A stretch of 64,000 nucleotides of DNA, taken from assembly GCF_003019675.1 (NCBI RefSeq), contig NZ_CP028105.1:2124282-2188281 (forward strand). The letters are read 5' to 3'. The notes under the pieces are model-generated. The model searched no databases and was not told the DNA's origin. It was given only the letters and a program-made list of their open reading frames with translations. The stretch is from Fusobacterium ulcerans (GTDB taxonomy: Bacteria; Fusobacteriota; Fusobacteriia; Fusobacteriales; Fusobacteriaceae). Positions 37,998 to 53,024 of the stretch are shown one piece after another (within the stretch, counting starts at the first letter, position 1; every line of letters begins with the position of its first letter). The position numbers and the translations under genes were made by a program.

Positions 37998-39344
37998 TTG
38001 GAAAGTATAAGATCAATAATCAATTTTGTAAATAATTTGTTGTGGGGGAAAAATATATTAGTTGTTATGTTGATAGGTACAGCTGTATATTTTACTTTTA
38101 AGACAAAATTTATGCAATTTAGATTATTTGGAGATATAATAAGAATATTGAAGGGAAATGGAGATGAGAAAAGAGATGGAATCAGCTCATTGGAAACATT
38201 TTTTCTTGGAACAGCTTGCAGAGTAGGAGCAGGAAATATCTCAGGAGTTGTTGCAGCAGTTTCTATTGGAGGACCAGGAGCACTTTTCTGGATGTGGCTG
38301 GTAGCACTTCTTGGAGCAGCAACTTCTTTTGTTGAATCAAGTCTTGCTGTTATGTATAGAACTAAAATAAAAGATGGTGAATACCAGGGAGGAACTCCTT
38401 GGATTATAAAAAAAAGACTTAATATGAAATGGCTTGGGGCTATATATGTAGTTGCTTCTATTATATGCTATATAGGAGTTATACAGGTAATGTCCAATTC
38501 AGTAACAGAATCAGTAGTCAGTGCATATGGATTCAATCCTAAGATAATAGCTGTTGTATTGGCTCTCGTTGTAGGTTTGATAATATTTGGAAAAAGTAAA
38601 AAAGATAAAATAATATTAGCACTTAATAAGATAGTTCCTGTAATGGCTATCATGTATCTTTTGGTAGTTATTTATGTTATTATTACTAATCTGACAGGAA
38701 TTCCAGCAATGATAGGGAATATATTTTATCAGGCCTTTGGAGGAAAAGAATTCTTAGGTGGAGCTGTAGGTGGAATTATAATGCAGGGTGTAAGAAGAGG
38801 ATTATTTTCTAATGAGGCTGGAAGTGGAAATTCAAACTATGCAGCAGCAGTGGTTGATATAGATGAACCAGCTAAGCAGGGAATGGTACAGGCTTTAGGT
38901 GTTTTTGTTGATACTCTTATAATATGTAGTGCTACAGCATTCGTTATTCTATTAGCTGATAAAGATGTAGTAAATGGACTTACAGGAATGACTCTTTTTC
39001 AAGAAGCATTAAAAAATCATATTGGATGGATTGGGATACCTTTTACTGTAATTGTCTTATTTTTCTTTTCTCTTAGTACAATATTGGGAGTTACATATTA
39101 TGGGAAAAATGCTATGAATTTTATAAGCTCAAAGGCAATTGTAAAAGAAGTATATCATGTAGTAGTGGTTATTATGGTATATATAGGTGGAATTGAGCAA
39201 AATTTCTTCGTTTGGTCTCTGGCAGATTTTGGATTGGGAATAATGACAGTAATTAATATATTGTGTATTATACCTATTTCAGGAGAGGCTTTAAATGAAT
39301 TGAAAAAATATGAAATAAAATTGAAAAGTAAAAAGAGAGCCTAA
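37998..39344 (+). CDS. AGCS family sodium:alanine/glycine symporter
   Basis: A 448-residue amino-acid:cation symporter with about 11 helices. Family hallmarks are GTACRVGAGNISGVVAAVSIGGPGALFWMW, the GGTPW segment, and MQGVRRGLFSNEAGSGNSNYAAA. The start is TTG, 8 bases after AGGAGG. It is divergent from the phosphonate/LicD operon and convergent with the two-component genes, so it could serve either neighbouring system or neither. It imports small neutral amino acids by family analogy. Confidence 0.92.
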   Translation: MESIRSIINFVNNLLWGKNILVVMLIGTAVYFTFKTKFMQFRLFGDIIRILKGNGDEKRDGISSLETFFLGTACRVGAGNISGVVAAVSIGGPGALFWMWLVALLGAATSFVESSLAVMYRTKIKDGEYQGGTPWIIKKRLNMKWLGAIYVVASIICYIGVIQVMSNSVTESVVSAYGFNPKIIAVVLALVVGLIIFGKSKKDKIILALNKIVPVMAIMYLLVVIYVIITNLTGIPAMIGNIFYQAFGGKEFLGGAVGGIIMQGVRRGLFSNEAGSGNSNYAAAVVDIDEPAKQGMVQALGVFVDTLIICSATAFVILLADKDVVNGLTGMTLFQEALKNHIGWIGIPFTVIVLFFFSLSTILGVTYYGKNAMNFISSKAIVKEVYHVVVVIMVYIGGIEQNFFVWSLADFGLGIMTVINILCIIPISGEALNELKKYEIKLKSKKRA

Positions 39345-39354
39345 AAGCTCTCTT
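39333..39354. terminator. Bidirectional terminator between the symporter and response regulator
   Basis: AAGAGAGC pairs with GCTCTCTT across a 6-base loop. It overlaps the symporter stop codon, with T-rich tails in both directions. Confidence 0.8.
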
Positions 39355-39994
39355 ATTTTTTCCATGAATACTCGTTTCTAGGTCTTCCAATTTTTCCATA
39401 AATAATTTTCAAGTCGACCATTTCTATTTCAACAAGATAGTTCATATATTTATTTACTGTTTGAGAAGCAAGACCAGTAGCTTCTGATATTTCCTCAATT
39501 GTAATGTATGAATTAATTTGTTTCATTTTATTTTCAATTAATGAAATAGTGTTGACACTTATTCCTTTTTTATAATCCCCATACTTTTCTTTTTTTGCTG
39601 TAGAAATTTCAGGAAAAGATTCTGTTGTTTTTTTCTTATTAAGGTGTACATTTACTCTCGAGTATAAATCAAGAACTTTAATAGGTTTGATAGCAAAATC
39701 ATCAGCTCCAGCAAGGAAAAATTCCTCAGCAATGTTTTCTAATCCTTCAATAGTAAGAGCTATTATAGATACATTTTCATTCATCTGTCTTATTAATTTT
39801 ACTCCAAGTACTCCATTTATATAAGGCATATGATAATCAATTATTATGATATCAAGCTCTTTAGTACTCACTATTTTTAAAGCTTCTTCCATTGAAAGTG
39901 CTGTGTACACTTCCCAATCCTTCATAAGAAAAAATTCTGAGACAGCAAAGATAATATCCTTAGAATCATCTATGATAAGAATTTTATTTTTCAT
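39353..39994 (-). CDS. Response regulator with CitB/DctR-like HTH output domain
   Basis: A 213-residue regulator. The receiver (about 1-120) has the acidic pair IDDSKD, phospho-acceptor Asp in IIIIDYHMP, the Thr in IIALT and the Lys in AIKP. The C-terminal helix-turn-helix (about 165-200: ITIEEISEATGLASQTVNKYMNYL, then GKIGRPRNEY) resembles CitB/DcuR-type regulators of organic-acid and amino-acid uptake. It overlaps the kinase gene by 11 bases. Likely targets are the adjacent symporter and the divergent gamma-glutamyl gene cluster (inference). Confidence 0.88.
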   Translation of the reverse strand: MKNKILIIDDSKDIIFAVSEFFLMKDWEVYTALSMEEALKIVSTKELDIIIIDYHMPYINGVLGVKLIRQMNENVSIIALTIEGLENIAEEFFLAGADDFAIKPIKVLDLYSRVNVHLNKKKTTESFPEISTAKKEKYGDYKKGISVNTISLIENKMKQINSYITIEEISEATGLASQTVNKYMNYLVEIEMVDLKIIYGKIGRPRNEYSWKK

Positions 39995-41381
39995 TTCCTA
40001 AAACCTCCCCCTGCATAACGATATATACTCCAATCCCTCTTTTTTTTCTATTTTTAATAAATATTTTAGATTTATGTTCTTCCATAACTGTTTTTACAAA
40101 ATTTAACCCCACTCCACTGGAATTTTTAGTTGAAAAACCATTTATAAAAGCATTTTCAAGTTCTTTTTCAGACATTCCTTTTCCATAATCTTCAATTTTT
40201 ATAAGTACAAATTTTTTATAATCTTTTATAGTAAGCTCAATTTTGTTATTTTCATATTCTGTAAAAGCTTCATAAGAATTTATAATTAAATTAGTGATAG
40301 CTCTTGAAAAAACTATTTTATTAACTTTTATTTTTCTTCCAGTGCAGTAATTGTTATAGATTAAAAATTCAATGCACTTATGTGTTGAAAGATAAGAAAG
40401 AATAAAATTGAATACTTTGTTTATATCAATAGGATTTTTGTGTGTATCCCTTAAAATTTCAGATACCATTATATTACATCTTTCCAGAGATTTTTCAATT
40501 CTGTTATAATAATCTTTTTTCTTTTCATTTTCTTCCTGCATATCAAGTATTTCAATAAGAGTCCCCATAGAAAATAATGGAGTTTTTAAATCGTGAACTA
40601 AATATTGAATTTCTTTTAGATATCTATTTTCAACTTCTTGTAATTTCAAATCTGAAAGAGCTTTTGTCATATCTTTTTCTTTTTCATATATATTCTGCCT
40701 TCTCTCCTGCTCGAAAAATACAAGGAGGAGAGTTATGGAAAATATAAAGAAAAGGATAAAGAATAAAAAACCAATAAGGTTTAAGATGTTATCAGCTTCC
40801 ATTAATGAAGAAATATTTTTTAGATCAAAAAAGATTTCTCCAGTTGATTTATAGTCCAATACAGAAAAATATTTTGTAATATCAAGCCATTGGATACCAG
40901 TAAATACAAGGAGAAGAACAACATTTCTTTTAAATAAACTAATATTCTTAAAACGATTGCTTGAATGAAATGCTAGATAAATCATTTCAAGTATAGATAC
41001 TTTACCAAAATAATAATCCATATCATAGTATACTTTGTATATTATAAAATAAATTGCCTGAATTATCAACATTCCAAAAATAACCTTTAAAGTATTATTC
41101 AATTTACCATTTATTTCTATATCGATAGAATCCATGAGGAGGAAAACAGAAAAAAATATTGGAAATGATTTTATTGTATTTAGAAAAACTAAACCAAATG
41201 CAGCATGGAGAAGATATTCTTTATCCCAAAAGTCTATACTTTTTTCTAAAGAATCATAAATATCAAAATTTTTATATAATAAAAAATTAGGCAGGACAAT
41301 ACTTATTAAAACCATTAGTATTCCTAATGAAAGTTCTGTTTTATGAATTTGAATATGAAATTTTTTCCCCAAAATTTTCAT
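39984..41381 (-). CDS. Membrane sensor histidine kinase
   Basis: A 465-residue kinase with about six to seven N-terminal membrane helices (about 1-230), a short coiled linker, and a kinase core. The core shows the H-box LVHDLKTPLFSMG, N-box NLIINSYEAF, G1 DYGKGMS and G2 GVGLNFVK. No PAS, HAMP or large extracellular domain is evident, so sensing is probably within or through the membrane part. Two ATGs are close; the second (41381) is properly spaced from AAGGGG. It forms a pair with the response regulator and is divergent from the gamma-glutamyltransferase cluster. Confidence 0.9.
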   Translation of the reverse strand: MKILGKKFHIQIHKTELSLGILMVLISIVLPNFLLYKNFDIYDSLEKSIDFWDKEYLLHAAFGLVFLNTIKSFPIFFSVFLLMDSIDIEINGKLNNTLKVIFGMLIIQAIYFIIYKVYYDMDYYFGKVSILEMIYLAFHSSNRFKNISLFKRNVVLLLVFTGIQWLDITKYFSVLDYKSTGEIFFDLKNISSLMEADNILNLIGFLFFILFFIFSITLLLVFFEQERRQNIYEKEKDMTKALSDLKLQEVENRYLKEIQYLVHDLKTPLFSMGTLIEILDMQEENEKKKDYYNRIEKSLERCNIMVSEILRDTHKNPIDINKVFNFILSYLSTHKCIEFLIYNNYCTGRKIKVNKIVFSRAITNLIINSYEAFTEYENNKIELTIKDYKKFVLIKIEDYGKGMSEKELENAFINGFSTKNSSGVGLNFVKTVMEEHKSKIFIKNRKKRGIGVYIVMQGEVLGNEK

Positions 41382-41464
41382 GATCATTCCCCTTAAATCT
41401 AGAAATTATTAATTTCTTCTTTATGATTACAAATTAAATTAATGATACCACATTTTAAGTAAAA

Positions 41465-41567
41465 ATAGTAGGAAAAAGATGAGAGGAAAAAGAGGAAAAA
41501 GAGAAATAAAAGTATAAGATTTACTTTTTATATATCTTGAAATATAATTAATAGTAGGAAAAAAGAT
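41465..41567 (+). promoter_or_regulatory. Promoter of the gamma-glutamyl cluster with flanking direct repeats
   Basis: TTTACT (41520-41525), 17-base spacer, TATAAT (41543-41548). ATAGTAGGAAAAAGAT is found at 41465-41480 and again, with one extra A, at 41551-41567, 86 bases apart, bracketing the promoter. The stretch between is purine-rich. A binding site for the divergent two-component regulator is plausible (inference). Confidence 0.45.
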
Positions 41568-41612
41568 ATAAAAATTTCAAAATAGAACAAAAAAATAAAA
41601 AAGGGGGAACAT

Positions 41613-43316
41613 ATGATTTCGTTGAAGAGATTTATGAAAGTTGGGAGTGTAATAGTTGGTTTAATGGTAAGTGTTTTTACTGTGTCTAGTGCAGCCAACC
41701 CTGACAATCTTTATGGAAGACATGCTGAAGGGAAAAATGGAGTGGTAGCAGCAGCTAATCCAGAAGCATCTAAAATAGGTGTAGAAGTGATGAAAAAAGG
41801 TGGAAATGCAGTGGATGCAGCAGTTGCAACAGCATTTGCTATCAGTGTATTTGAACCTAATGCATCAGGAATTGGTGGAGGAGGATTCATGTTAATCAGA
41901 ATGGCTAAAACTGGTAAAACAGTAGTCATAGATTATAGAGAAAAAGCTCCAGCTAAAGCAACACCTGATATGTTTGTACTTGATGAAAATGGAAAAGTAG
42001 TAAATGATGAAATAACTGTTGGAGGAAAAGCTTCAGGAGTTCCTGGAACAGTAGCAGGACTTTTAACAGCATTAGAAAAATATGGAACTATGAAAAGAGC
42101 AGATGTTATGGCTCCAGCTATAAAACATGCAGGTGAAGGAATAATAGTTTCAAAGAACTTAGAAGGAATAATTCAAGACAACTATGAGAAATTAGTTAAA
42201 TTTGATGCAGCATCAGAAGTATATTTAAAAGATGGATTACCATATGAAGCTGGAGACAGACTTGTAAATAAGGATTTAGCAGCAACTCTTACAAAAATAT
42301 CAAAAGAGGGTAAAAAAGCTTTCTATGAAGGAGAAATAGCTAAGAAAATAGCTGATGAAGTTCAAAAACAAGGCGGTCTTATGACAGTTGAAGACCTTAA
42401 AAATTATACAATTGAAGAAAGAGAGCCAGTAGTTGGAAAATACAGAGATTATACAATTATATCTTGTCCACCAGCAAGTTCTGGAGGAACTCATATAGTA
42501 CAACTTTTAAATATGGTAGAAAATTATGACCTTAAAGCAATGGGAGACAACACTCCTGAGAGCTGGCATATATGGGCTGAAAGTATGAAACAAGCTTTTG
42601 CAGACAGAGCAGAATATATGGGAGATACAGCTTATGTAAAAGTTCCTTTAAAAGGTCTTACTTCTAAAGAATATGCAAAAGAAGTAGTTAAGAAAATAGA
42701 TCTGGAAAAAGCTGGAAAAGATATTAAAATTGGAGATCCTAGCAAATATGAAAGTGGAAGTACAACTCACTTTTCTGTAATGGACAAAGATGGAAATATG
42801 GTTGCAGTAACTCAAACTATTAACTATTTCTTTGGTTCTGGAGTTGTAGTGCCAGGAACTGGAATAATGATGAATAATGAGATGGACGACTTTGTTCCAC
42901 AAAAAAATATGAAAAACTCTATTGAAGGTGGAAAAAGACCTCTAAGCAGCATGTCACCTACTTTAGTTCTTGATCCTAAAAACAGACCATTAATGACAAT
43001 TGGTTCTCCAGGGGCTACAAGAATTATACCAGCAGTAGCATTGACTATAAGTAACGTAATAGATCATGGAATGACTCTTCAAGAAGCTATCAATGCACCT
43101 AGAATTGCTCAATTCCAATCAGGAAAATTAAATGCTGAAGGAAGAATGTCTTTTGAATCTTATAATAAATTACAAGAAATGGGACATGAGATTAACATGA
43201 GAGGAACTTATGATAATTACTTTGGTGGAGTACAAGGAATTATGATGGACTATGATACAAAAACTCTTCAAGGTGGAGCAGATCCAAGAAGAGATGGACA
43301 AGCAGCAGCATTCTAA
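41613..43316 (+). CDS. ggt: Exported gamma-glutamyltransferase
   Basis: A 567-residue GGT precursor with a signal peptide (core VGSVIVGLMVSVFTVSSAA). Large and small subunits arise by self-cleavage before the catalytic Thr in GSTTHFSVMDKDGN. Substrate loops PLSSMSPT and GSPGATRI, and the N-terminal GGNAVDAAVATAFA and GIGGGGFM, are intact. GGTs hydrolyse or transfer gamma-glutamyl groups of glutathione, glutamine or poly-gamma-glutamate. It is followed by a second GGT gene and lies upstream of pgsBCW, so action on poly-gamma-glutamate (like CapD) is an alternative to glutathione use. Confidence 0.93.
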   Translation: MISLKRFMKVGSVIVGLMVSVFTVSSAANPDNLYGRHAEGKNGVVAAANPEASKIGVEVMKKGGNAVDAAVATAFAISVFEPNASGIGGGGFMLIRMAKTGKTVVIDYREKAPAKATPDMFVLDENGKVVNDEITVGGKASGVPGTVAGLLTALEKYGTMKRADVMAPAIKHAGEGIIVSKNLEGIIQDNYEKLVKFDAASEVYLKDGLPYEAGDRLVNKDLAATLTKISKEGKKAFYEGEIAKKIADEVQKQGGLMTVEDLKNYTIEEREPVVGKYRDYTIISCPPASSGGTHIVQLLNMVENYDLKAMGDNTPESWHIWAESMKQAFADRAEYMGDTAYVKVPLKGLTSKEYAKEVVKKIDLEKAGKDIKIGDPSKYESGSTTHFSVMDKDGNMVAVTQTINYFFGSGVVVPGTGIMMNNEMDDFVPQKNMKNSIEGGKRPLSSMSPTLVLDPKNRPLMTIGSPGATRIIPAVALTISNVIDHGMTLQEAINAPRIAQFQSGKLNAEGRMSFESYNKLQEMGHEINMRGTYDNYFGGVQGIMMDYDTKTLQGGADPRRDGQAAAF

Positions 43317-43334
43317 ATAAAAATGTAAGTTATA

Positions 43335-43368
43335 AAACTGCTTCTGAAATAAGTTTCAGAAGCAGTTT
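43335..43368 (+). other. Intercistronic hairpin between the two GGT genes
   Basis: A perfect 15-bp stem, AAACTGCTTCTGAAA/TTTCAGAAGCAGTTT, with a 4-base loop. The sequence after it is ATAAAAATAAAC, not a T-tract, so it looks more like an mRNA processing or stabilising hairpin, or a leaky terminator, than a full terminator. Confidence 0.65.
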
Positions 43369-43397
43369 ATAAAAATAAACAAATTGGAGGAAAGATA

Positions 43398-45152
43398 ATG
43401 AAAAAAAGATTCTTTTTTGCAAGTGTTATAGCAGCATTAGCATTATCAATAGCTGCATGTACAACTACTCAAACAAATCTGGGGTCTAAGGGTACAGCTT
43501 CAACAATTCAACAGTCAAAAGAATGGGTTCCTTATGATGCCGCAGGAAATATTTTAAGAAGTGACAGAGATGCAACTGGGGTAAATGGAGTAGTATCAAC
43601 AGGGAAATACGAAGCAACAAAAATAGGAGTAGATATAATAAAACAAGGTGGAAACGCAATAGATGCTGCGGTTGCTGCTGGATTTGCATTAGGAATATGT
43701 GAACCTCAATCTTCTGGAATTGGTGGTGGAGGATTTATGGTAATTCGTTTCGCTAAAACTGGAGAAACTAAATTTATAGATTTTAGAGAAATAGCTCCTA
43801 AAAATGCAACTCCAGATATGTGGAAAGAAGATAAAGATGGAAATGTAATAGGAAATGAAAAAGTTGTTGGAGGAAAATCTATAGGAGTTCCAGGAGAAGT
43901 AAAGGGAATGCTGTATGCATTAGAAAAATATGGAACTATGTCAAGAGAAAAAGTTATGCAGCCAGCAATTGATTTAGCAGAAAATGGATATAAAGTATCA
44001 GCAGTACTGAATAGGGATATGAAGAATTCTTTTGAGAGAATAGAACAATATCCTGAAACAGCTGAAATATACCTAGATGGAGGACTTCCTTTTGAAGTTG
44101 GTTCTACATTAAAAAATCCTGATTTGGCTAATACATTGAAAAAAATAATGAAAAATGGAGAAAAAGCCTTTTATGAAGGGGAAATAGCAGAGGCAATAGT
44201 AAAATCAGCACAAGATGCTGGTGGGCCTTTAACTATGGAAGATATGAAAAATTATAATATAAGAGTTAGTGATCCTTTAGTAGGACATTATAGAGGATAT
44301 GAAATAATAACATCAGCACCACCTTCATCTGGGGGAGCACATATAGTCCAAATTCTTAATATTTTAGAAAATTATAATATGAAAGATATAAAACCAGGAT
44401 CAGCAGAATATTATCATCTATTCTCAGAAGCAATTAAAATGGCATTTGCAGATAGAGCTAAGTTCTGTGGAGATACTGAGTTTGTAGATGTTCCAGTTGA
44501 TGGAATAATTTCTAAAGATTATGCAAAAGAACTTGTAAAAAAATTAGACATGAAAAAATCTAAAGATTATTTAGCAGGGAATCCATGGAAATGGAATGAA
44601 TCAAAAGATACAACTCACTATTCAATAGTTGATAAAGAAGGAAATATAGTAGCTGTTACAAAAACTGTAAATGATGTTTTTGCTTCTGGAGTAGTAGCAG
44701 AAGGAACTGGAATACTTTTAAATGATGAAATGGATGATTTTGATACTGGACATGGGAAAGCTAACTCAGTAGAACCAGGGAAAAAACCGTTAAGTTCAAT
44801 GAGTCCTACAATAGTATTAAAAGATGGAAAACCAGTAATGAGTTTAGGTGCTCCAGGGTCTACTAGAATTATAACAGGAGTAGCTCAAGTAATAAGTCTT
44901 GTTCTTGACTATGGAATGGATATTCAGGAAGCGATAAACTTCCCGAGAATTCATGATGATTATCAAGAATTAGTATATGAAACAAGAATAGATCCAGCAG
45001 TTGTAGCAAAATTAAAAGCTATGGGACATACAGTAGTAGAAGAGGGAGAATGGTTTGAATATCCTTGCGTTCAAGGTGTAACAATGGGAGAAGATGGAAA
45101 ACTTAGAGGAGGGGCAGACCCAAGAAGAGATGGTAAAGCTCTGGGATTCTAA
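43398..45152 (+). CDS. Lipoprotein gamma-glutamyltransferase (second copy)
   Basis: A 584-residue GGT paralogue with a lipoprotein signal (LSIAAC, lipidated Cys21), so it is membrane-tethered, unlike its soluble neighbour. Catalytic Thr in KDTTHYSIVDKEGN, GGNAIDAAVAAGFA, GIGGGGFM, PLSSMSPT and GAPGSTRI are all intact. The two proteins are clearly homologous along their length but diverged, so the duplication is old. An anchored and a free GGT side by side suggests division of labour, for instance one trimming or attaching polymer and the other releasing glutamate (inference). Confidence 0.92.
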   Translation: MKKRFFFASVIAALALSIAACTTTQTNLGSKGTASTIQQSKEWVPYDAAGNILRSDRDATGVNGVVSTGKYEATKIGVDIIKQGGNAIDAAVAAGFALGICEPQSSGIGGGGFMVIRFAKTGETKFIDFREIAPKNATPDMWKEDKDGNVIGNEKVVGGKSIGVPGEVKGMLYALEKYGTMSREKVMQPAIDLAENGYKVSAVLNRDMKNSFERIEQYPETAEIYLDGGLPFEVGSTLKNPDLANTLKKIMKNGEKAFYEGEIAEAIVKSAQDAGGPLTMEDMKNYNIRVSDPLVGHYRGYEIITSAPPSSGGAHIVQILNILENYNMKDIKPGSAEYYHLFSEAIKMAFADRAKFCGDTEFVDVPVDGIISKDYAKELVKKLDMKKSKDYLAGNPWKWNESKDTTHYSIVDKEGNIVAVTKTVNDVFASGVVAEGTGILLNDEMDDFDTGHGKANSVEPGKKPLSSMSPTIVLKDGKPVMSLGAPGSTRIITGVAQVISLVLDYGMDIQEAINFPRIHDDYQELVYETRIDPAVVAKLKAMGHTVVEEGEWFEYPCVQGVTMGEDGKLRGGADPRRDGKALGF

Positions 45153-45207
45153 TAGAAAAAATATTCATATGAGAAGGCAATAATAAAATACAGGAGGAAT
45201 AAATAAA

Positions 45208-45741
45208 ATGAAAAAATTATTAACAGTATTGATGTTTGTATTAACAGCAATGGCAGCAATGGCAGCAAAATTTGAAAAACCAATAATGCTTACTTCAGTA
45301 GGACAAAGTGCTGATGTACAAATGGTAAAAGCTCTATTGAAAAAAGGTGGATTGGAATCTGAATTTGACAAATCAATAACAGCAGAAGGATTAACAAATG
45401 AGAAAACTTTAATTCTTGCTATAGGAGGAAGTTCTAAAGGGCTTGGAGCAGCTGGAATAAAAGTTGAAGATGAACTTGACAGAACTGCTAAATTAATAAA
45501 AGGTGCAAGAGATAAAGGGATAAAAATAATTGGAATGCACATTGGTGGAGCAGCAAGAAGAGGAGAATTATCTGATAAATTCGTAAATGCAGCAGCACCA
45601 AATGTAGATTATTTAATCATTGTAGAAGAAGGAAATAAAGACGGTTTATTTACAAAAATGTCAACTGAAAAGAATATTCCTATGGACACAGTTCCAAAGA
45701 TTACTAATGCAGTAGATCCATTGAAAAAAGCATTTGAATAA
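45208..45741 (+). CDS. Small exported protein (DUF6305-like)
   Basis: A 177-residue secreted protein with a signal peptide (MKKLLTVLMFVLTAMAAMAA). The mature part has a Rossmann-like pattern (PIMLTSVGQSADVQMVKALL, LILAIGGSSKGLGAAG, IKIIGMHIGGAARRG, DYLIIVEEG). I believe this is the family catalogued as DUF6305, usually found beside a TRAP-type permease as here. It may be a periplasmic partner of the permease, but it does not look like DctP-type binding proteins. Function unknown. Confidence 0.7.
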   Translation: MKKLLTVLMFVLTAMAAMAAKFEKPIMLTSVGQSADVQMVKALLKKGGLESEFDKSITAEGLTNEKTLILAIGGSSKGLGAAGIKVEDELDRTAKLIKGARDKGIKIIGMHIGGAARRGELSDKFVNAAAPNVDYLIIVEEGNKDGLFTKMSTEKNIPMDTVPKITNAVDPLKKAFE

Positions 45742-45748
45742 TTTGATT

Positions 45749-45776
45749 AATAGGGGACAATGCATTGTCCCCTATT
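45749..45776 (+). other. 28-bp perfect palindrome between the DUF6305-like and permease genes
   Basis: AATAGGGGACAAT-GC-ATTGTCCCCTATT is a perfect 28-base palindrome with a GC centre, and no T-tract follows. In an operon position it would form a strong mRNA hairpin that could lower expression of the downstream permease. Confidence 0.65.
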
Positions 45777-45798
45777 ATTTAAAGGAGGGAAAGAAGAT

Positions 45799-47070
45799 AT
45801 GTCACTTGAACTTATATTATTTTTAGCTATGGTAGCTGTCTTTATGATTGCATGTTTTGCAGCAAAATTACCAGTAAGTATAGCTATGGTATTATCATCT
45901 ATAACAGCAACACTTATAGCAGGGAAAGGTATCCCTGTTAGACATTTAATTGAAGGAACTTTTGGATATATAGATACAATTCTTGTAATAGCAACAGCTA
46001 TGATTTTTATGAAAGTTATTCAGGAAATAGGAACATTGAATGCTTTGAGTGCTTCAATAATTCGTAAATTTCATAAAACATCTTGGCTTTTACTTGTATT
46101 ATTAATGTTTATATCAATGTTCCCAGGAATGATAACTGGATCATCAACAGCATCTGTATTAACAGCAGGAAGTATAGTTGCTCCTATCTTGATGCTTATA
46201 GGAATACCTATGGTAGAAACAGCTACTATTATAGCTCTTGGAGGGATATTAGGGATGATAGCTCCTCCAGTTAACGTACCAGCTATGATTATAGGTGGAG
46301 GAATAGATATGCCTTATGTTGGATTTACTATTCCATTATTACTATTGACAGTACCAGTAGCAATATTCTCAGTATTGTATCTTGGGTTGAAACATGTAAA
46401 TAAAATAGATTACAGCGAAATAAAAAATGAAATAGATTTTACAGCAATTGATGAATATGGAATGAAGCTGTATATACCTATCATTATAGCAATGTTTTTA
46501 ATGACTATGGATAAAGTTGCTCCAAGCCTATTTGGTTTGGGAATGCCTCTGATATTTATTTTGAGTGCTATATCAGGACTTTTCTGTGGTAAAAAAATAA
46601 ACTTCTTTAAAGTTTCAAAAGAAGCAGTTAATCAAACTCTTCCAGTAATGGGAATCTTAATGGGAGTTGGGATGTTTATTCAGGTAATGACATTAACAGG
46701 AGTGAGAGGATATATTGTTGTTAGCAGCTTAAGTCTTCCTCCATCTTTGATATATGTTGCAATGGCTATAACTATACCGTTATTTGGAGCAGTATCATCA
46801 TTTGGAGCAGCTTCAGTTCTTGGAGTTCCTTTTTTAATGGTATTTTTATCACAAAATCAAATTATCACAGGTTCAGCTATATCTTTTATAGCTTCTCTTG
46901 GAGATTTGATGCCGCCTACAGCACTTGCAGGAATATTTGCAGCTCAAGTAGTAGGAATGAAAGACTATACTCCTGTGCTAAGAAAAGCAGCAGTTCCAGC
47001 AGTAGTTATCATAATTTATTCTATAGTTATGATAATTTTCTCTAACCAATTAGGATCTATCATATACTAG
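45799..47070 (+). CDS. TRAP-type large permease (DctM-like)
   Basis: A 423-residue membrane protein with about 12 helices, related to TRAP transporter large subunits. Typical features are PVSIAMVLSSITATL, the GMITGSSTASVLTAGSI segment, GILGMIAPPVNVPAMIIGGGIDMP and GDLMPPTALAGI. Met at 45799 follows AAAGGAGGG; the longer frame starts inside the palindrome. No classical DctP or DctQ gene accompanies it. The DUF6305-like protein and the 48-residue membrane protein occupy the usual partner positions. Glutamate, gamma-glutamyl peptides or a dicarboxylate are candidate substrates from context. Confidence 0.85.
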   Translation: MSLELILFLAMVAVFMIACFAAKLPVSIAMVLSSITATLIAGKGIPVRHLIEGTFGYIDTILVIATAMIFMKVIQEIGTLNALSASIIRKFHKTSWLLLVLLMFISMFPGMITGSSTASVLTAGSIVAPILMLIGIPMVETATIIALGGILGMIAPPVNVPAMIIGGGIDMPYVGFTIPLLLLTVPVAIFSVLYLGLKHVNKIDYSEIKNEIDFTAIDEYGMKLYIPIIIAMFLMTMDKVAPSLFGLGMPLIFILSAISGLFCGKKINFFKVSKEAVNQTLPVMGILMGVGMFIQVMTLTGVRGYIVVSSLSLPPSLIYVAMAITIPLFGAVSSFGAASVLGVPFLMVFLSQNQIITGSAISFIASLGDLMPPTALAGIFAAQVVGMKDYTPVLRKAAVPAVVIIIYSIVMIIFSNQLGSIIY

Positions 47071-47087
47071 GATGAGGTGATGAAAAT

Positions 47088-47234
47088 ATGATGATGTATA
47101 TATACTTAGCTTTAGTTTTATATGTTTTAGTAATGGTTGTTTTAAATCTATTAGAGGAAAAAGATTTGATGAAACAAGTAAATGCAGCTCTTGTTATAAT
47201 TCCTCTATTATTGAGAATATTAATGATAAAATAA
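47088..47234 (+). CDS. 48-residue membrane protein between the permease and AstE-like genes
   Basis: A short gene starting ATGATGATG 17 bases after the permease stop, with GAGGTGA suitably spaced upstream. The protein has two hydrophobic segments (YIYLALVLYVLVMVVLNLL and ALVIIPLLLRILMI) joined by a charged loop, EEKDLMKQ. Operon position, a good ribosome binding site and a protein-like composition support it. It might substitute for the small DctQ subunit of the TRAP permease, but it is much shorter, with two rather than four helices. Confidence 0.6.
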   Translation: MMMYIYLALVLYVLVMVVLNLLEEKDLMKQVNAALVIIPLLLRILMIK

Positions 47235-47246
47235 GGGGGAAAGAAA

Positions 47247-48374
47247 ATGAAAGGAAATAGAGGAACAGGAATTGCAATGATTTTTCTTTCTCTGATTGTT
47301 GCATTTCTAGCAGGAAAAGAATTTTTAAAAATGAGAGAGGCAGAGCCTATAGTAAAAGGTGAAGGTGTAACTTCAATGCAAAAATTAAGTGACTATCTTC
47401 CAGCATTAAAAGGGACTTCTGGAGACAGTGATGTCTATATCCTTCAAGGAAAAGAAGAAGGTGGAAGTGTTCTTGTATTAGGAGGAACTCATGGAAATGA
47501 ACCTTCAGGATATATGACAGCAATACTTATGATAGAAAATCTAAAAGTTGATAAAGGAACTGTTTATATTCTTCCAAGAACTAATGGAAGCGGACTTACA
47601 CACAATGACCCTCAAGAAGGATCACCACAAAGATTTACATTAAAAACTCCATATGGAGAAAGATGGTTTAGATATGGATCAAGAGCAACTAACCCTCTGG
47701 ACCAATGGCCTGACCCTGATGTATATATTCATGCTGCATCTGGTCAGCAACTTTCAGGAAATGAAACTAGAAATATCAACAGAGCATATCCAGGAAGACC
47801 TGATGGAACTTATACTGAAAAAATGGCTTATGCAATAACAGAAATGATAAGACAAAATAAAATAGATATGACTATTGACCTTCATGAAGCATCTCCTGAA
47901 TACCCAGTAATTAATGCTATAGTATCTCATGAAAGAGCAATGCCTATAACATCACAAGTGGTTATGAATATGGAATTTGATGATATAGCAATTGGATTAG
48001 AGCCATCTCCAGTATCTTTGAGAGGACTTACTCACAGAGAATTAGGAGATTATACAGATACTTATGCTGTACTTATGGAATCAGCAAATGCTGCTCAGGG
48101 AAGACTTAGAGGAAAAACAGATGAAGCTCTTGTATTAACAGGAAAAGATCCTAGATATGTAGAAGCTCAAAAGTTAGGAAGATTATTTGTACCTTATGAT
48201 GAAAATGGACATCCTTTAGAAGAAAGAGTAGGAAGACACTTGACAGGAGTTGTTCAACTTGTTACAGTAATGGGTGAAAATGAACCTGAAAAAGAAATTA
48301 TACTAGAAGGAGCACCATCTTATTCAGAGCTTCTTGAAAACGGTGTAGGATATTATTTAAAAGAGGTAAAATAA
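47247..48374 (+). CDS. Membrane-anchored M14/AstE-like zinc hydrolase
   Basis: A 375-residue protein with one N-terminal membrane helix (IAMIFLSLIVAFLAG) and a succinylglutamate desuccinylase/aspartoacylase-type zinc carboxypeptidase domain. Metal ligands are His82 and Glu85 (GGTHGNEPSG) and His213 (IDLHEASPEYP); NINRAYPG supplies the usual Arg. The enzyme probably faces the periplasm. In the setting of GGT and poly-gamma-glutamate genes it may cleave gamma-glutamyl or N-acyl-glutamate bonds (inference). It lies 12 bases after the small membrane protein. Confidence 0.85.
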   Translation: MKGNRGTGIAMIFLSLIVAFLAGKEFLKMREAEPIVKGEGVTSMQKLSDYLPALKGTSGDSDVYILQGKEEGGSVLVLGGTHGNEPSGYMTAILMIENLKVDKGTVYILPRTNGSGLTHNDPQEGSPQRFTLKTPYGERWFRYGSRATNPLDQWPDPDVYIHAASGQQLSGNETRNINRAYPGRPDGTYTEKMAYAITEMIRQNKIDMTIDLHEASPEYPVINAIVSHERAMPITSQVVMNMEFDDIAIGLEPSPVSLRGLTHRELGDYTDTYAVLMESANAAQGRLRGKTDEALVLTGKDPRYVEAQKLGRLFVPYDENGHPLEERVGRHLTGVVQLVTVMGENEPEKEIILEGAPSYSELLENGVGYYLKEVK

Positions 48375-48394
48375 TTTAAAAAAGAGGTAGAAAT

Positions 48395-49072
48395 TTGATA
48401 AAAAAAATCTTGTTTATATTGATATTTAATTCTATCATATGCTATCCAAATGAAAAAGTTTCATTATCTGAAATTGATTATTTTAAAACTGGAAGGGGAA
48501 AGCCAGTGGTTATGATAATTGGTGGAATACATGGTGATGAAATATCTGGAATAGAAAAAGCCAGAGAGTTTAAAGAATATAAAATTTCAAAAGGAACTCT
48601 TGTAATAATTCCAGAAGCAAATAAAGAAGCAGTAAGAAGTGGAAATAGAACTGAATATTATATGCAAGATTTGAATAGATCTTTTTTTCAAAATAATAAT
48701 GATAAATCTTCTAAAAAAGCTCAAGAAATTATAAAAGTAATAGAGCAGTACAAACCAAATATAATATTAGATTGTCATGAATCCTATTATAATTATGATG
48801 AAAATAAAGACCCAAATTTTTATATTGGAAATACCTTAATATTTCAGCAAAATACAATGGATGAATATCCAGAACTTATATTCAGCCTGCTTGAAGAGGG
48901 ATTTATTCCTCTTCAAGGGGCAGAAAAAGGAAGCCTCAATAGAGAGGTTTCAGAAAAAATGAATATTTCAGTAATAACTATTGAAAGTTCTAGAGAAGAT
49001 ACAGTAGAAGTGAGAAAAGAAAAATATGAAACTGTTTTTAAGAAAACCTTAAAATATTTAAAAATGGAGTAA
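48395..49072 (+). CDS. Second, secreted M14/AstE-like zinc hydrolase
   Basis: A 225-residue protein with a signal peptide (MIKKILFILIFNSIICYP) and a compact zinc carboxypeptidase-like fold: GGIHGDEISG (His, Glu), QDLNRSFF and ILDCHESY (third ligand His). It is shorter than the preceding paralogue. The start is TTG with AGAGGTAG upstream. Phage gamma-PGA hydrolase PghP is also an M14-like zinc enzyme, so a role in trimming poly-gamma-glutamate fits the position just before pgsB, but this is inference. Confidence 0.82.
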   Translation: MIKKILFILIFNSIICYPNEKVSLSEIDYFKTGRGKPVVMIIGGIHGDEISGIEKAREFKEYKISKGTLVIIPEANKEAVRSGNRTEYYMQDLNRSFFQNNNDKSSKKAQEIIKVIEQYKPNIILDCHESYYNYDENKDPNFYIGNTLIFQQNTMDEYPELIFSLLEEGFIPLQGAEKGSLNREVSEKMNISVITIESSREDTVEVRKEKYETVFKKTLKYLKME

Positions 49073-49076
49073 AATT

Positions 49077-50222
49077 ATGGAAAAAATAATTCTTATACTA
49101 TGTTTTATCTGCATAGGGTATCTTTTTTTTGAGAAAAAAAGAGCCACGAATCAGAGAAAAACTTTTAAATATGTCATCCATGTAAATGGAATCAGGGGGA
49201 AATCAACAGTTTCCAGGCTTATAGATGCAGGAGTACGTGCTGGAGGCTATAAGACATTCACAAAAACTACTGGAACATCTCCTAGAACTATTTCTGTTTT
49301 TGGAGAAGAAAAAGAAATAAGCAGAAAAGGTAAGGCGAATATAAAAGAGCAGATAAAAGCAATAAACTGGGCTTATAAAGAAGGAGCAGAGGTTCTGATT
49401 TTAGAATGTATGGCTGTAAAACCAGAGTTGCAGCATATATGTGAGAATAAAATATTAGATTCTGACATTGGAGTAATTACTAATGTAAGAGAAGATCATC
49501 TTGATGAAATGGGGAAAACTTTAGATGAGATAGCAGAATCGCTTTCCAATACAGTTCCAAAAAATGGAGCTTTTTTCACAAGTGATAAAAAATATTTTGA
49601 ATTTTTTAAAAGAAAAGCTGAAGAAAAAAATTCTAAAGCATTTATAAATGAAAAAGAAAAAAAAGAGTATTGGGAGATTGATTTTGCCAACAATGTGGCT
49701 TTAGCAGTAGAGGTATGTAAATACATGGGTATAGATGAAGAAAAGGCTTTAAAAGGAATGAGAGAATATTACAAAGACCCTGGATGTTTAAAAACTTTAG
49801 CATATAAAAATGAAAAGGGACATGAAGTGTTTTTTGTAAATGCTATGGCTGCAAATGATCCGAATTCTACAGATATAATTTTAGAAAGAATATCTAAAAG
49901 ACCTTACTGGAAAAATAAAAGATATCTTTTAGTAAATAACAGAGGAGATAGAGTAAGCAGATGGGAGCAGTACATAAAATTTGTAAAGAGTGTTGAAGAT
50001 AAATTTGATAAAATAGTAGTTTCTGGAGAAAATAGAGAGCTTTTTAAAAAATATTTATTAAAAAACAGAGTAGATGAAAATAAAATAGAAATATTACAAA
50101 ATGAAAAATATTTTGATGAAATAGAAGATGGAATACTTATTTTTGCTGTTGGAAATATATGTGGGCATGGGAAAAAATTAGTGGACTATCTGGAGAACAA
50201 GGGGGAGATAATAGATGGCTAA
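49077..50222 (+). CDS. pgsB: Poly-gamma-glutamate synthase subunit PgsB/CapB
   Basis: A 381-residue Mur-ligase-like amide ligase. After one N-terminal membrane helix come the P-loop NGIRGKST (residues 38-44), TKTTGTSPR, LECMAVKPE, and NVREDHLDEMG. This is the pattern of PgsB/CapB, which activates and adds glutamate to the gamma-linked polymer at the membrane. It begins 4 bases after the zinc hydrolase and overlaps pgsC. Fusobacterium nucleatum has been reported to make polyglutamate, which supports the assignment. Confidence 0.93.
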   Translation: MEKIILILCFICIGYLFFEKKRATNQRKTFKYVIHVNGIRGKSTVSRLIDAGVRAGGYKTFTKTTGTSPRTISVFGEEKEISRKGKANIKEQIKAINWAYKEGAEVLILECMAVKPELQHICENKILDSDIGVITNVREDHLDEMGKTLDEIAESLSNTVPKNGAFFTSDKKYFEFFKRKAEEKNSKAFINEKEKKEYWEIDFANNVALAVEVCKYMGIDEEKALKGMREYYKDPGCLKTLAYKNEKGHEVFFVNAMAANDPNSTDIILERISKRPYWKNKRYLLVNNRGDRVSRWEQYIKFVKSVEDKFDKIVVSGENRELFKKYLLKNRVDENKIEILQNEKYFDEIEDGILIFAVGNICGHGKKLVDYLENKGEIIDG

Positions 50223-50673
50223 TGACATAATAATATTTGGTATTATACTTAGTATAATATTTTATGAAATTACAGAAATATCTCCTGGAGGTTTAATTGT
50301 ACCAGCATATATAGCTTTTTATATAAATACGCCTCAGAGAATTATTATAACTATAATTGCTGGAATACTGACTTTTCTTATTGTGAAATTTATATCAAAT
50401 CATACTATAATTTATGGAAGAAGAAAATTTGCACTATGTATCATGATAAGCTTTATGATAAGACTCATATTAAAATATTTCAATATTTATATAGTGAACG
50501 AATATGAGATTTATATTTTAGGCGGAAGTGTAATAGGAGTAATAATTCCAGGAATAATGGCACAGGAAATGGATAGACATGGAATAGTAAGAACTGTGTC
50601 TTCTCTTATGATACTTTCAATATTTATAAAAGCTGTAGTAGAGGTTATCTATAAGGCAGGTGGAGTCAATTGA
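50215..50673 (+). CDS. pgsC: Poly-gamma-glutamate synthase subunit PgsC/CapC
   Basis: A 152-residue membrane protein with about five helices and the PgsC start (ISPGGLIVPAYIAFYI), then GSVIGVIIPGIMAQEMDRHGI. PgsC forms the membrane core of the polyglutamate synthase with PgsB. It overlaps pgsB by 8 bases and pgsW by 4, so the three genes are translationally coupled. Confidence 0.92.
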   Translation: MANDIIIFGIILSIIFYEITEISPGGLIVPAYIAFYINTPQRIIITIIAGILTFLIVKFISNHTIIYGRRKFALCIMISFMIRLILKYFNIYIVNEYEIYILGGSVIGVIIPGIMAQEMDRHGIVRTVSSLMILSIFIKAVVEVIYKAGGVN

Positions 50674-51722
50674 ATAAAAAAATCAATAATATCACCCTTG
50701 CAGTTATAGCTTTACTGTTTATTTTTATTCAATATGGATTGAAAAATAAAGAGATAAAAGTGAAGAGCCCTTATTATAATGAGATGATAGAAGCTTCTAC
50801 GAAAATGAAAAATATGAGTGCAGAAATAAAAAGTGAAAGAATAAGAAGAGGAATAGAGATAGATAAAAGTCTGGATATTAATGAAACTGGACTTATTGGA
50901 GAAGAATGGAGTGGAATAACAACTACTCTTGGGAATCTTGAAAGTAAAAGAACAAGTACAAATCCTGATTTTGCAGCTCTTATGGTAAAATTATTCAAAG
51001 AAAAAGGTTTGAAAAAAGGTGATATAATAGCTGCAAATATTTCAAGTTCTTTTCCAGCTCTAAATTTATCGTTAATAGCTGCTGCTGATACTCTTGGACT
51101 GAATGCAATAATGGTAAATTCAGTTGGAGCCTCTACATATGGAGGAAATATTGAAAACTTTACATATCTTGATATGGAAAATCATCTTTTTTCTAAGGGA
51201 ATGATTCAAAATAGGAGCAGAGGATTTTCTTTGGGAGGAATAGGAGACATTGGAAGAGAATTTGAAGATGAGATAAAAGAAAAAATAATAGAGAAAAACA
51301 AAGGATATGGACTCCATTTTTTTTATAATGAAAATTTAGAAAAAAATATAGAGGAAAGATATAGTTATTTCGTAAAAGAAAGTAACAATAAAATAAAAGC
51401 TTTTGTAAATATAGGAGGAAATCTTTTAGCTATTGGAGACAGTGTAGATATCATAGTAAATTCAAAAGTACTTTTGGATAAAAATACAAATATGAAAAAG
51501 GGATTAGTAGGGAAATTTTTAAAAGATGAAATTCCAGTTTTTTATCTTCTAAACCTCAAAGGAATAGCAACAGCATATAATTTACCTTTTGATCAATCTA
51601 ATCTTCAAAACAAAACAATTTCTGATATTTATTTTAAAAAAAATGGCAATATATGGAACTATTTGATCATTGTAATTTTCTTAGTGTTTATATTGAAAAC
51701 GATATTTATGAAAAAAAAATAA
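50670..51722 (+). CDS. pgsW: Poly-gamma-glutamate system protein PgsW
   Basis: A 350-residue protein with membrane helices at both ends (INNITLAVIALLFIFIQYG and IWNYLIIVIFLVFILKTIF) and an extracytoplasmic middle. The middle contains IGEEWSGITTTLGNLESKR, NPDFAALMVKLF, GDIIAANISSSFPALNLS and NIGGNLLAIG. I recognise this as the PgsW family, found with PgsB and PgsC in systems lacking a CapA/PgsA lipoprotein. No capA-like gene is present in the window. The start is probably TTG in the context GTCAATTGAATAAAAA. Confidence 0.82.
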   Translation: MNKKINNITLAVIALLFIFIQYGLKNKEIKVKSPYYNEMIEASTKMKNMSAEIKSERIRRGIEIDKSLDINETGLIGEEWSGITTTLGNLESKRTSTNPDFAALMVKLFKEKGLKKGDIIAANISSSFPALNLSLIAAADTLGLNAIMVNSVGASTYGGNIENFTYLDMENHLFSKGMIQNRSRGFSLGGIGDIGREFEDEIKEKIIEKNKGYGLHFFYNENLEKNIEERYSYFVKESNNKIKAFVNIGGNLLAIGDSVDIIVNSKVLLDKNTNMKKGLVGKFLKDEIPVFYLLNLKGIATAYNLPFDQSNLQNKTISDIYFKKNGNIWNYLIIVIFLVFILKTIFMKKK

Positions 51723-51760
51723 AAAAATTTATGAAAAGTATTGAGTTTATTGAAAAAAAA

Positions 51761-51782
51761 TGCTACTGTAATAGTAGTAGCA
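51761..51782 (+). promoter_or_regulatory. Inverted repeat in the HU promoter region
   Basis: TGCTACT (51761-51767) and AGTAGCA (51776-51782) are exact inverted copies 8 bases apart, about 36 bases before the HU start. A TATAAA at about 51794 could be the -10. It may be an operator; it is also a possible weak hairpin after pgsW. Confidence 0.35.
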
Positions 51783-51818
51783 ACACAATATCATATAAAA
51801 TAGTTGGGAGTGATAAGA

Positions 51819-52139
51819 ATGACAAAAAAAGAATTTGTAGAATTATTTGGAACTAAAGCTGGAATAAAAACTAAAGTAGAAGCAGACAAACTTACAAAAG
51901 CATTTATAGATACTCTTGAAGAAATTTTAGTAAAAGGTGAAAATGTGTCATTCATAGGATTTGGAAAATTCGAAGCTGCTGAAAGAGCTGCTAGAACTTG
52001 TGTTAACCCACAAACTAAAAAACCTATGAAAGTAGAAGCTAAAAAAGTTGCTAAATTTAGAGCTGGAAAAAATTTATTAGAAAAAATGAATCCAGTTGTT
52101 GAAAAGAAAGCTGCAAAATCTAAGAAAAAAGGAAAATAG
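51819..52139 (+). CDS. hup: HU family DNA-binding protein
   Basis: A 106-residue HU/IHF-type nucleoid protein. The N-terminus MTKKEFVELFG, the FIGFGKFEAAERAARTCVNPQTKKP beta-arm region and FRAGKNLLEKM are typical. A Lys-rich tail (EKKAAKSKKKGK) extends beyond the usual 90 residues. Met at 51819 follows a GGGAGTGATAAGA; the frame opens five codons earlier. Monocistronic with its own terminator. Confidence 0.93.
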   Translation: MTKKEFVELFGTKAGIKTKVEADKLTKAFIDTLEEILVKGENVSFIGFGKFEAAERAARTCVNPQTKKPMKVEAKKVAKFRAGKNLLEKMNPVVEKKAAKSKKKGK

Positions 52140-52154
52140 TTAAATATATGAAAT

Positions 52155-52179
52155 AGCTGCTTACGGGCAGCTGTTTTTT
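52155..52179 (+). terminator. Terminator of the HU gene
   Basis: AGCTGC pairs with GCAGCT across a 6-base loop, then GTTTTTTA. Two more A/T hairpins follow in the 282-base gap: CAAATTTT/AAAATTTG (52215-52239) and AAAACTTTG/CAAAGTTTT (52257-52280). Confidence 0.8.
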
Positions 52180-52333
52180 ATATATCTGCTTATATTTTAT
52201 TAGCAAGTGCAAATCAAATTTTTATTAAAATAAAATTTGTACAAAAAACAGGACTAAAAACTTTGAAAAAACAAAGTTTTATGCGCAAGATATAGAGAAT
52301 TTTGAATTCTAGCTTTATACTTCTTTTTTTATA

Positions 52334-52342
52334 TGATATAAT
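52334..52342 (+). promoter_or_regulatory. Extended -10 promoter of plsY-gpsA
   Basis: TGATATAAT (TGnTATAAT) at 52334-52342, 80 bases before plsY; the -35 is weak (TTTATA). Confidence 0.45.
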
Positions 52343-52421
52343 TTAAAGTGAGAAAAAATTTATTTGAAAATTAATAGAAGTCTATACGGTATAGAAGAGA
52401 TATAAACATAGGAGAGAAATC

Positions 52422-53024
52422 ATGAAAGAAATATTATTTTTAGTTTTAGGTTATGTAATGGGAGCGCTTCCAAACGGTGTATGGATAGGAAAATATTTTA
52501 AAAAAATAGATATAAGAGAGCATGGCAGTAAAAATTCAGGAGCAACAAATGCTTACAGAGTATTGGGGCCTAAATATGGACTTATGGTACTGGCAGCAGA
52601 TGCATTAAAAGGATTTCTGCCTCCATTTATAGCTAGTAGATATGGAGTGACGGGAAATATGCTGTTATTAATAGGAGTTTTAGCTATTGTTGGACATTCT
52701 CTATCTTTCTTCCTTCATTTTAAAGGTGGAAAAGGAGTAGCAACAAGTTTAGGAGTATTTCTTTTTCTAATCCCAAATGTAACTCTTGCTCTATTAATAG
52801 TTTTTATATTAGTGGTTTATTTTACAAGATATATTTCTTTAGGATCAATTATAGCGGCAGCAGCACTACCTATTCTTACTGCATTAAGTCCAGTAGGATA
52901 TGGAATAGGAAAGACCCCTCTTCTAGTAATGACTACTTTAATAGGAGTTTTCGTAATATACAGACATAGAACTAACATCAAAAGGCTTATGGAAGGAACA
53001 GAAAATAAATTTAAGCTTAAATAA
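52422..53024 (+). CDS. plsY: Glycerol-3-phosphate acyltransferase PlsY
   Basis: A 200-residue membrane acyltransferase with about five to six helices. It uses acyl-phosphate to acylate glycerol 3-phosphate, the first step of phospholipid synthesis. Conserved blocks: GALPNGVWIGKYF, the GSKNSGATNAYRVLG segment, HFKGGKGVATSLG and IYRHRTNIKRL. GGAGAG precedes the ATG. It is followed 12 bases later by gpsA, which makes its substrate. Confidence 0.95.
   Translation: MKEILFLVLGYVMGALPNGVWIGKYFKKIDIREHGSKNSGATNAYRVLGPKYGLMVLAADALKGFLPPFIASRYGVTGNMLLLIGVLAIVGHSLSFFLHFKGGKGVATSLGVFLFLIPNVTLALLIVFILVVYFTRYISLGSIIAAAALPILTALSPVGYGIGKTPLLVMTTLIGVFVIYRHRTNIKRLMEGTENKFKLK

What the first reader, a model, noticed from the sequence alone, without database searches (positions are those of the whole stretch)
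41613..51722. Integrated poly-gamma-glutamate island: synthesis, two GGTs, two zinc hydrolases and a TRAP-type uptake permease
PgsB, PgsC and PgsW make and export gamma-linked glutamate polymer; GGT (CapD-like) enzymes cut or transfer gamma-glutamyl bonds; M14-like zinc enzymes include known gamma-PGA hydrolases. Finding free and lipid-anchored GGT, anchored and secreted zinc hydrolases, a TRAP-like permease and a divergent two-component system in one run suggests a complete make, trim, attach and recycle system. F. nucleatum is reported to make polyglutamate, but the hydrolase-permease part is, to my knowledge, not described as part of it.
Basis: partly seen in the sequence, partly recalled or inferred. 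Interest (0 to 1): 0.75.

Follow-up and report, generated by a model that had tools for sequence, protein, structure and literature searches.

The report
Polyglutamate make-and-recycle gene island
A fusobacterial gene cluster pairs the machinery that makes a glutamate polymer with a fixed set of enzymes, a transporter and a tiny membrane protein that probably break the polymer down and take the pieces back in, and the same set travels together in several distant groups of bacteria.

Summary
In 98 Fusobacteriota genomes, PgsB, DUF6305 and the microprotein occur in the same 17 genomes and none of the other 81. Around 80 permease homologues from about six phyla, the zinc enzyme follows the permease in 72 of 72 assessable loci, and the microprotein is present in 79 of 80, the exception ending inside the permease. 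At genome level the module nearly always comes with PgsW, linked or not. The reverse fails: 9 of 10 PgsW-bearing Spirochaetota genomes lack DUF6305 and show no module genes beside PgsBCW. So the module looks like an add-on that needs the polymer. DUF6305 also occurs without pgs in Clostridia, next to a related two-component system, suggesting sensing. Best reading: trimming and re-import of gamma-glutamyl polymer under two-component control; substrate and transport direction are inferred. The permease has the ion-transporter-superfamily fold but is not a canonical TRAP system. A new variant of known PgsBC polymer systems.

The parts
39353..39994 (-). response regulator (receiver plus winged helix, weak DpiA-like HTH)
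   Evidence: PF00072 74 bits; homologue in 14 of 15 fusobacterial loci, the other cut by a contig end
39984..41387 (-). multi-pass sensor histidine kinase
   Evidence: HisKA and HATPase_c; hydropathy peaks at 14-32, 66-84, 99-117, 207-225
41613..43316 (+). GGT1, exported gamma-glutamyltransferase, without lid loop
   Evidence: TIGR00066 567.7 bits; 15-residue linker before PLSSM
43398..45152 (+). GGT2, probable lipoprotein gamma-glutamyltransferase, without lid loop
   Evidence: TIGR00066 573.4 bits; aligned with E. coli and Bacillus-type GGT chains
45208..45741 (+). secreted DUF6305 protein, alpha/beta Rossmann-like
   Evidence: PF19823 185.2 bits; AF2 model mean pLDDT 88.3
45799..47070 (+). 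permease of the ion-transporter superfamily (longest ORF starts at 45760)
   Evidence: PF06808 38 bits; AF2 model pLDDT 81.5; NaS1 Z 25.9, TRAP-M Z 21.0
47088..47234 (+).
47247..48374 (+). ZnA, membrane-anchored AstE/AspA-type zinc amidohydrolase
   Evidence: PF24827 36.6 bits; H82, E85, H213, E278 invariant in 38 sequences; N-terminal hydrophobic segment
48395..49072 (+). ZnB, small AstE/AspA/M99-like enzyme, optional
   Evidence: PF24827 46.6 bits, PF17033 35.1 bits; 6 of 15 fusobacterial loci
49077..50222 (+). PgsB polymer ligase
   Evidence: TIGR04012 445.4 bits, cut-off 222.7
50215..50673 (+). PgsC membrane subunit
   Evidence: TIGR04011 142.4 bits, cut-off 96.45
50670..51722 (+). PgsW, TIGR04332 poly-gamma-glutamate system protein, one hydrophobic segment at each end
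   Evidence: TIGR04332 377.7 bits, cut-off 100; hydropathy

Best explanation
The island joins a polymer-making unit (PgsB, PgsC, PgsW) to a dedicated recovery module (GGT, DUF6305, permease, microprotein, ZnA). PgsB with PgsC and PgsW polymerise glutamate through gamma bonds and move the chain across the inner membrane. Outside it, GGTs without a lid loop and the membrane-anchored zinc enzyme ZnA cut the chain. The permease, with its 48-aa partner, brings glutamate or short gamma-glutamyl pieces back in by ion-coupled transport. DUF6305 and the kinase-regulator pair sense the state of the pool and adjust expression. Shown: gene content, domain identity, cross-phylum linkage, genome-level dependence of the module on PgsW, purifying selection on the microprotein. 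Inferred: the polymer's identity in this organism, ZnA's substrate, direction of transport, microprotein-permease contact, sensing role of DUF6305.
For: The same 17 of 98 Fusobacteriota genomes hold PgsB over cut-off, DUF6305 over cut-off and the microprotein at E <= 1e-19; PgsW is in 16 of these, the 17th having PgsB at a contig end. Around 80 permease homologues: ZnA directly downstream in 72 of 72 with 1.2 kb or more after the permease; DUF6305 directly upstream in 66 of 72; GGT in 73 of 80; PgsW within the flank in 40 of 80; microprotein in 79 of 80. Where PgsW was not nearby it is elsewhere in 34 of 38 genomes. The GGT linker has 15 residues where measured (window 2 of 2; 20 of 21 fusobacterial; 67 of 80 others, 11 unmeasurable, 2 odd), as in the Bacillus-type GGT segment (15) and unlike E. 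coli (25); a paper abstract states that B. subtilis GGT lacks the lid loop and E. coli GGT carries it (PMC6202685, passages). ZnA keeps its zinc-site residues in all 38 sequences aligned. The permease fold is that of ion-coupled carboxylate and anion carriers. PgsBCW without the module exists (9 loci) while the module without PgsW is limited to 3 bins, as expected for an add-on that uses the polymer.
Against: No assay of polymer, transport or transcription. ZnA's nearest solved relatives cover only part of it and by name act on acyl-amino acids (diaminobutyrate deacetylase); neither zinc enzyme matched a phage gamma-PGA hydrolase family in Pfam. DUF6305 with this kind of kinase pair occurs without pgs in 15 of 391 Clostridia genomes, where inspected beside peptide-binding proteins, so it is not polymer-specific. 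The 80 loci were chosen by permease similarity (best 80 of 182) and most are bins, so linkage counts are not an unbiased sample. GGT is not within reach in 7 of 80 loci. The microprotein-permease link rests on position alone.
Confidence: 0.6

Rival explanations
1. Supply, not recovery: the permease imports glutamate or a related dicarboxylate as precursor for PgsB, while GGT and ZnA shape or attach the finished polymer, as CapD does in Bacillus.
For: The permease fold is typical of dicarboxylate and anion carriers, GGT is related to CapD chains, and a precursor supplier would also depend on PgsBCW.
Against: PgsBCW occurs in 9 spirochaete loci without the permease nearby. ZnA follows the permease in 72 of 72 assessable loci while PgsB does not always lie near, which ties transport to hydrolysis more than to synthesis.
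Confidence: 0.22
2. General gamma-glutamyl or peptide scavenging (for example host glutathione) that merely shares regulation with pgs.
For: GGTs act on glutathione in many bacteria (recalled). In Clostridia DUF6305 and the kinase pair sit with peptide-binding proteins, M20 peptidases or an AbgT-type carrier in the loci inspected.
Against: Genome-level dependence on PgsBCW across phyla, including genomes where the two parts lie apart, is not expected for a glutathione pathway.
Confidence: 0.1
3. The permease, microprotein and DUF6305 form an export or quality-control route for the polymer rather than an importer.
For: How gamma-PGA crosses the membrane in PgsBC systems is not settled (recalled), and the module genes sit in one strand-wise run with pgsBCW.
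Against: PgsBCW without the permease nearby exists, so export should not need it; the fold is that of small-substrate elevator carriers.
Confidence: 0.05

Closest known systems
Bacillus PgsBCA(E) / CapBCADE gamma-PGA systems
   Same: PgsB and PgsC over NCBIfam cut-offs; GGT-family enzyme in the cluster, as with CapD (recalled)
   Different: No PgsA/CapA-family (PF09587) hit in the window's genome and 12 of the 16 other fusobacterial carriers, PgsW present instead; adds permease, microprotein, DUF6305, ZnA and a two-component pair; DUF6305 rings in none of the 14 control genomes, Bacillus subtilis being one of the controls
F. nucleatum polyglutamate (Candela et al. 2009; seen only as cited in PMC3815933 and PMC4497714)
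   Same: A fusobacterial polyglutamate producer said to be homologous to the B. subtilis machinery (passage)
   Different: Whether that species has this island was not determined here
TRAP transporters (DctPQM, SiaPQM)
   Same: Permease passes the DctM Pfam cut-off and matches TRAP-M structures (Z 21.0 for 7qha_B)
   Different: No DctP-type binding protein or DctQ found in the island; the small partner has 48 aa and two hydrophobic segments
DASS / NaS1 / ArsB carriers
   Same: Highest structural scores (NaS1 Z 25.9, ArsB 25.7)
   Different: Sequence identity 11-12 percent in those alignments; no solved chain found by the sequence profile
PghP gamma-PGA hydrolase
   Same: Zinc enzyme related to carboxypeptidase A by report (passage of PMC4497714)
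   Different: ZnA and ZnB match AstE/AspA (PF24827) and no PghP family in Pfam

Membership tests
PgsBC-type poly-gamma-glutamate synthase | PgsB ligase and PgsC membrane protein, adjacent | tested here: met
   TIGR04012 445.4 bits, TIGR04011 142.4 bits, genes overlapping by 8 nt
PgsBC-type poly-gamma-glutamate synthase | makes gamma-linked polyglutamate | not testable with these tools
   needs polymer chemistry
PgsBCA (Bacillus) subtype | PgsA/CapA protein (PF09587) | tested here: not met
   no hit in the window's genome
gamma-glutamyltransferase | family match and autoprocessing Thr region | tested here: met
   TIGR00066 over cut-off; STTHFSV and TTHYSI found
polymer-capable GGT subgroup | no lid loop | tested here: met
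   15-residue linker in both, as in the Bacillus-type chain, against 25 in E. coli
polymer-capable GGT subgroup | activity on gamma-PGA | not testable with these tools
   needs enzyme assay
AstE/AspA (M14-like) zinc amidohydrolase | HxxE...H zinc site and family match | tested here: met
   PF24827 36.6 and 46.6 bits over 25; H82, E85, H213 invariant in ZnA
TRAP transporter | DctM-type large subunit | tested here: met
   PF06808 38 bits over 23.8
TRAP transporter | DctP binding protein and DctQ small subunit beside it | tested here: not met
   Pfam gives DUF6305 for the upstream gene and nothing over cut-off for the 48-aa protein
DUF6305 | PF19823 match | tested here: met
   185.2 bits, cut-off 25

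The most novel reading that the evidence does not exclude
The permease, the 48-aa microprotein and DUF6305 form a new kind of carrier dedicated to gamma-glutamyl polymer fragments, coupled to ZnA and GGT, so that these bacteria run a closed make-cut-reimport cycle of polyglutamate under two-component control. The microprotein would be a conserved minimal subunit of an ion-transporter-superfamily permease, shared by about six phyla.
Probability: 0.4. Interest if true: 0.75.

Novelty: new variant of a known kind. Interest (0 to 1): 0.62.

Why it matters
It turns a one-genome gene list into a conserved module with a testable dependence on polyglutamate synthesis, gives candidate functions to DUF6305 and to a permease family with no NCBIfam model, and adds a small membrane protein found at 79 of 80 loci and matching nothing over cut-off in Pfam or NCBIfam. 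It also predicts that PgsBCW systems come in two forms, with and without recovery, which can be tested directly in culturable bacteria.

Tried and rejected
Canonical TRAP system: rejected, no DctP or DctQ. DUF6305 as a classical solute-binding protein: not supported; its model matches small alpha/beta folds only weakly (best Z 9.0; Foldseek TM-scores mostly under 0.45), which excludes nothing. DUF6305 as a pgs-specific protein: rejected by 15 Clostridia genomes without PgsW. Module as a necessary part of synthesis: rejected by 9 spirochaete loci. PgsA in place of PgsW: not in this genome. A structured RNA in the permease-ZnA gap: Rfam gave no match over 39000-53000, and the gap proved to be coding. 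Promoter scan: counts no better than shuffles (81 against 78.2, sd 8.7), so operon limits are not resolved. Search of solved structures with the permease profile: no hit; with the DUF6305 profile: only chance-level hits. Literature: DUF6305 in 0 papers; 'poly-gamma-glutamate system protein' in 1, a mutation table; polyglutamate with TRAP, Fusobacterium or GGT terms (listings only) and a small-subunit search (no paper) gave no title or abstract that describes this island; a review searched for these terms had none. The library lacks most subscription papers, so absence from print is not claimed. The 2009 F. nucleatum paper was not read.
Full report
What is there. The run 41613-51722 on the + strand encodes, in order, GGT1, GGT2 (lipoprotein-type start), DUF6305, a DctM-like permease, a 48-aa microprotein, ZnA, ZnB, PgsB, PgsC and PgsW; the kinase-regulator pair at 39353-41387 is divergent. 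Gaps between neighbours are 81, 55, 57, 17, 12, 20, 4, -8 and -4 nt, and most starts have a purine-rich site before them. This fits co-transcription but does not prove it; the promoter scan was no better than shuffles.

The 176-nt stretch between permease and ZnA holds an ORF in the window and in all 14 other fusobacterial gaps examined. In the window it is 47088-47234, preceded by GAGGTGAT. Over the 15 sequences the median dN/dS is 0.175 in its frame against 0.49 and 2.5 in the other two, and differences fall 1200/413/1937 on codon positions 1/2/3; these pairs are not independent, so the figures describe selection rather than test it. An HMM search of 21,230 small ORFs in 80 loci from about six phyla gave 79 hits, one per locus; 73 passed my position filter and the other 6 lie in the same gap by their coordinates; the one locus without it, L094, ends inside the permease. 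It matched no Pfam or NCBIfam family over cut-off. It has two hydrophobic segments and, in 18 diverse sequences, an invariant Tyr near the start and an invariant LR and IK near the end.

Linkage within Fusobacteriota. PgsW (TIGR04332) is over cut-off in 16 of 98 genomes, PgsB in 17 of 98, DUF6305 in 17 of 98, the microprotein at E <= 1e-19 in 17 of 98; the three sets of 17 are the same genomes and include the 16. Weaker matches in those calls were dropped: 60 genomes with low PgsB scores (the model also catches Mur-type ligases), 2 for DUF6305, 3 for the microprotein at E about 1e-3. In the 15 other loci fetched, permease, ZnA, PgsB, PgsC and PgsW are present in 15 of 15, and GGT, DUF6305 and the kinase pair in 14 of 15, the exception (L023) ending in the permease; ZnB in 6 of 15, both GGTs in 6 of 15, the carrier AGCS in 3 of 15. 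Permease, ZnA and DUF6305 are better conserved (mean column identity 84, 84 and 78 percent) than PgsC and PgsW (down to 40 and 41 percent identity to the window).

Linkage outside. A scan of named species genomes with the permease alignment found 182 relatives and returned the best 80; their titles name Bacillota/Clostridia, Spirochaetes, Synergistaceae, Aminicenantes, Bipolaricaulota and fusobacteria. ZnA lies directly downstream in 72 of 72 loci with room for it, DUF6305 directly upstream in 66 of 72, GGT somewhere in 73 of 80, PgsW in 40 of 80, kinase and regulator in 37 of 80. Of 40 loci without PgsW nearby, 39 (38 genomes) were searched whole: 34 genomes have PgsW over cut-off, one (G134) a fragment at a contig end, three (G104, G122, G127) none; these last three do have the microprotein. 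The fortieth, L054, has PgsB beside the module. Where PgsW is elsewhere, PgsC or PgsB accompanies it in 28 of the 30 short PgsW loci looked at.

Results that limit the claim. In 391 Clostridia genomes PgsW is over cut-off in 2 and DUF6305 in 18. The 15 genomes with DUF6305 and no PgsW signal have no permease, ZnA, PgsB, PgsC or PgsW beside it in 16 loci, and no microprotein in 15 of 15 genomes. There DUF6305 sits directly beside a kinase of the same kind in 14 of 16 loci, the other two contigs ending just after DUF6305, and, in the six loci whose ORFs I listed, after a family-5-like binding protein (one confirmed by Pfam), with M20 peptidases, ABC transporters, an AbgT-type or a GntP-type carrier near. 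So DUF6305 is shared between this kind of two-component system and the permease, which points to sensing. In 198 Spirochaetota genomes PgsW is over cut-off in 10 and DUF6305 in 2, one of them (G193) marginal; 9 PgsW genomes lack DUF6305, and their PgsBCW loci show no module gene in up to 20 kb. The dependence is one-way: the module needs PgsBCW, PgsBCW does not need the module.

Parts and mechanism. Both window GGTs lack the E. coli-type lid loop: 15 residues to the PLSSM motif, as in the Bacillus-type chain 4y23, against 25 in E. coli 2e0w (the species of these chains are recalled). B. subtilis GGT is reported to lack the lid loop (abstract and passages of PMC6202685); that such GGTs act on gamma-PGA is recalled and not from a call. 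ZnA keeps H82, E85, H213 and E278 in 38 of 38 sequences and has an N-terminal hydrophobic segment; that these are the zinc and catalytic residues is by analogy with the AstE/AspA family (recalled). The permease model has the ion-transporter-superfamily fold, with NaS1 (Z 25.9, 4.1 A over 404 residues), ArsB (25.7, 4.1 A, 396), NaDC3 (23.4, 4.7 A, 405) and the TRAP-M chain of SiaQM (21.0, 5.0 A, 392) all close. The DUF6305 model is alpha/beta with weak matches only (best Z 9.0, 3.1 A over 143). No PgsA-family protein is found in the window's genome, so PgsW probably stands in for it (inference). From this the most likely mechanism is export by PgsBCW, cutting by GGT and ZnA outside the inner membrane, and ion-coupled re-import of the products, regulated by DUF6305 with the kinase pair. 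Some named carriers (Clostridium tetanomorphum, C. symbiosum) are known glutamate fermenters (recalled), which would give a reason to bank and recover glutamate; this is speculation.

Verdict. It is a conserved, PgsBCW-dependent module of about six phyla, with an extra small membrane protein. Substrate, direction and physiological purpose are open.

Noticed in passing
L217-L232: In 15 Clostridia genomes DUF6305 lies beside a histidine kinase and regulator of the window's kind and, where inspected, after a family-5-like binding protein: a sensing module without pgs genes.
   Followed up: partly
L070:380-2236: One ORF carries three tandem DUF6305 domains joined by Ala/Pro-rich linkers in a Lachnospiraceae bin.
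   Followed up: no
L150, L153, L155, L156, L158, L160, L162: Loci from Lachnospiraceae bins with two tandem PgsW genes next to PgsC.
   Followed up: no
L252-L260: Spirochaetota genomes with PgsBCW but no recovery module nearby; in L252 the neighbours look like a glutamate-cysteine-ligase-type and a RimK-type protein (by eye, not searched).
   Followed up: partly
L100:7198 and L100:9807: The Bipolaricaulota locus has a ZnA-like gene on both sides of the permease.
   Followed up: no
L021 (G027:C1:458700-478600): DUF6305, permease and GpsA are each split by a frame change in this assembly, perhaps sequencing error.
   Followed up: no
window 35008-37696: A solute-binding lipoprotein and two nucleotidyltransferase-like ORFs on the minus strand (by eye, not searched).
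   Followed up: no
window 37998-39344: An AGCS amino-acid carrier next to the regulator gene (TIGR00835), conserved beside the island only in the 3 closest of 15 loci.
   Followed up: partly
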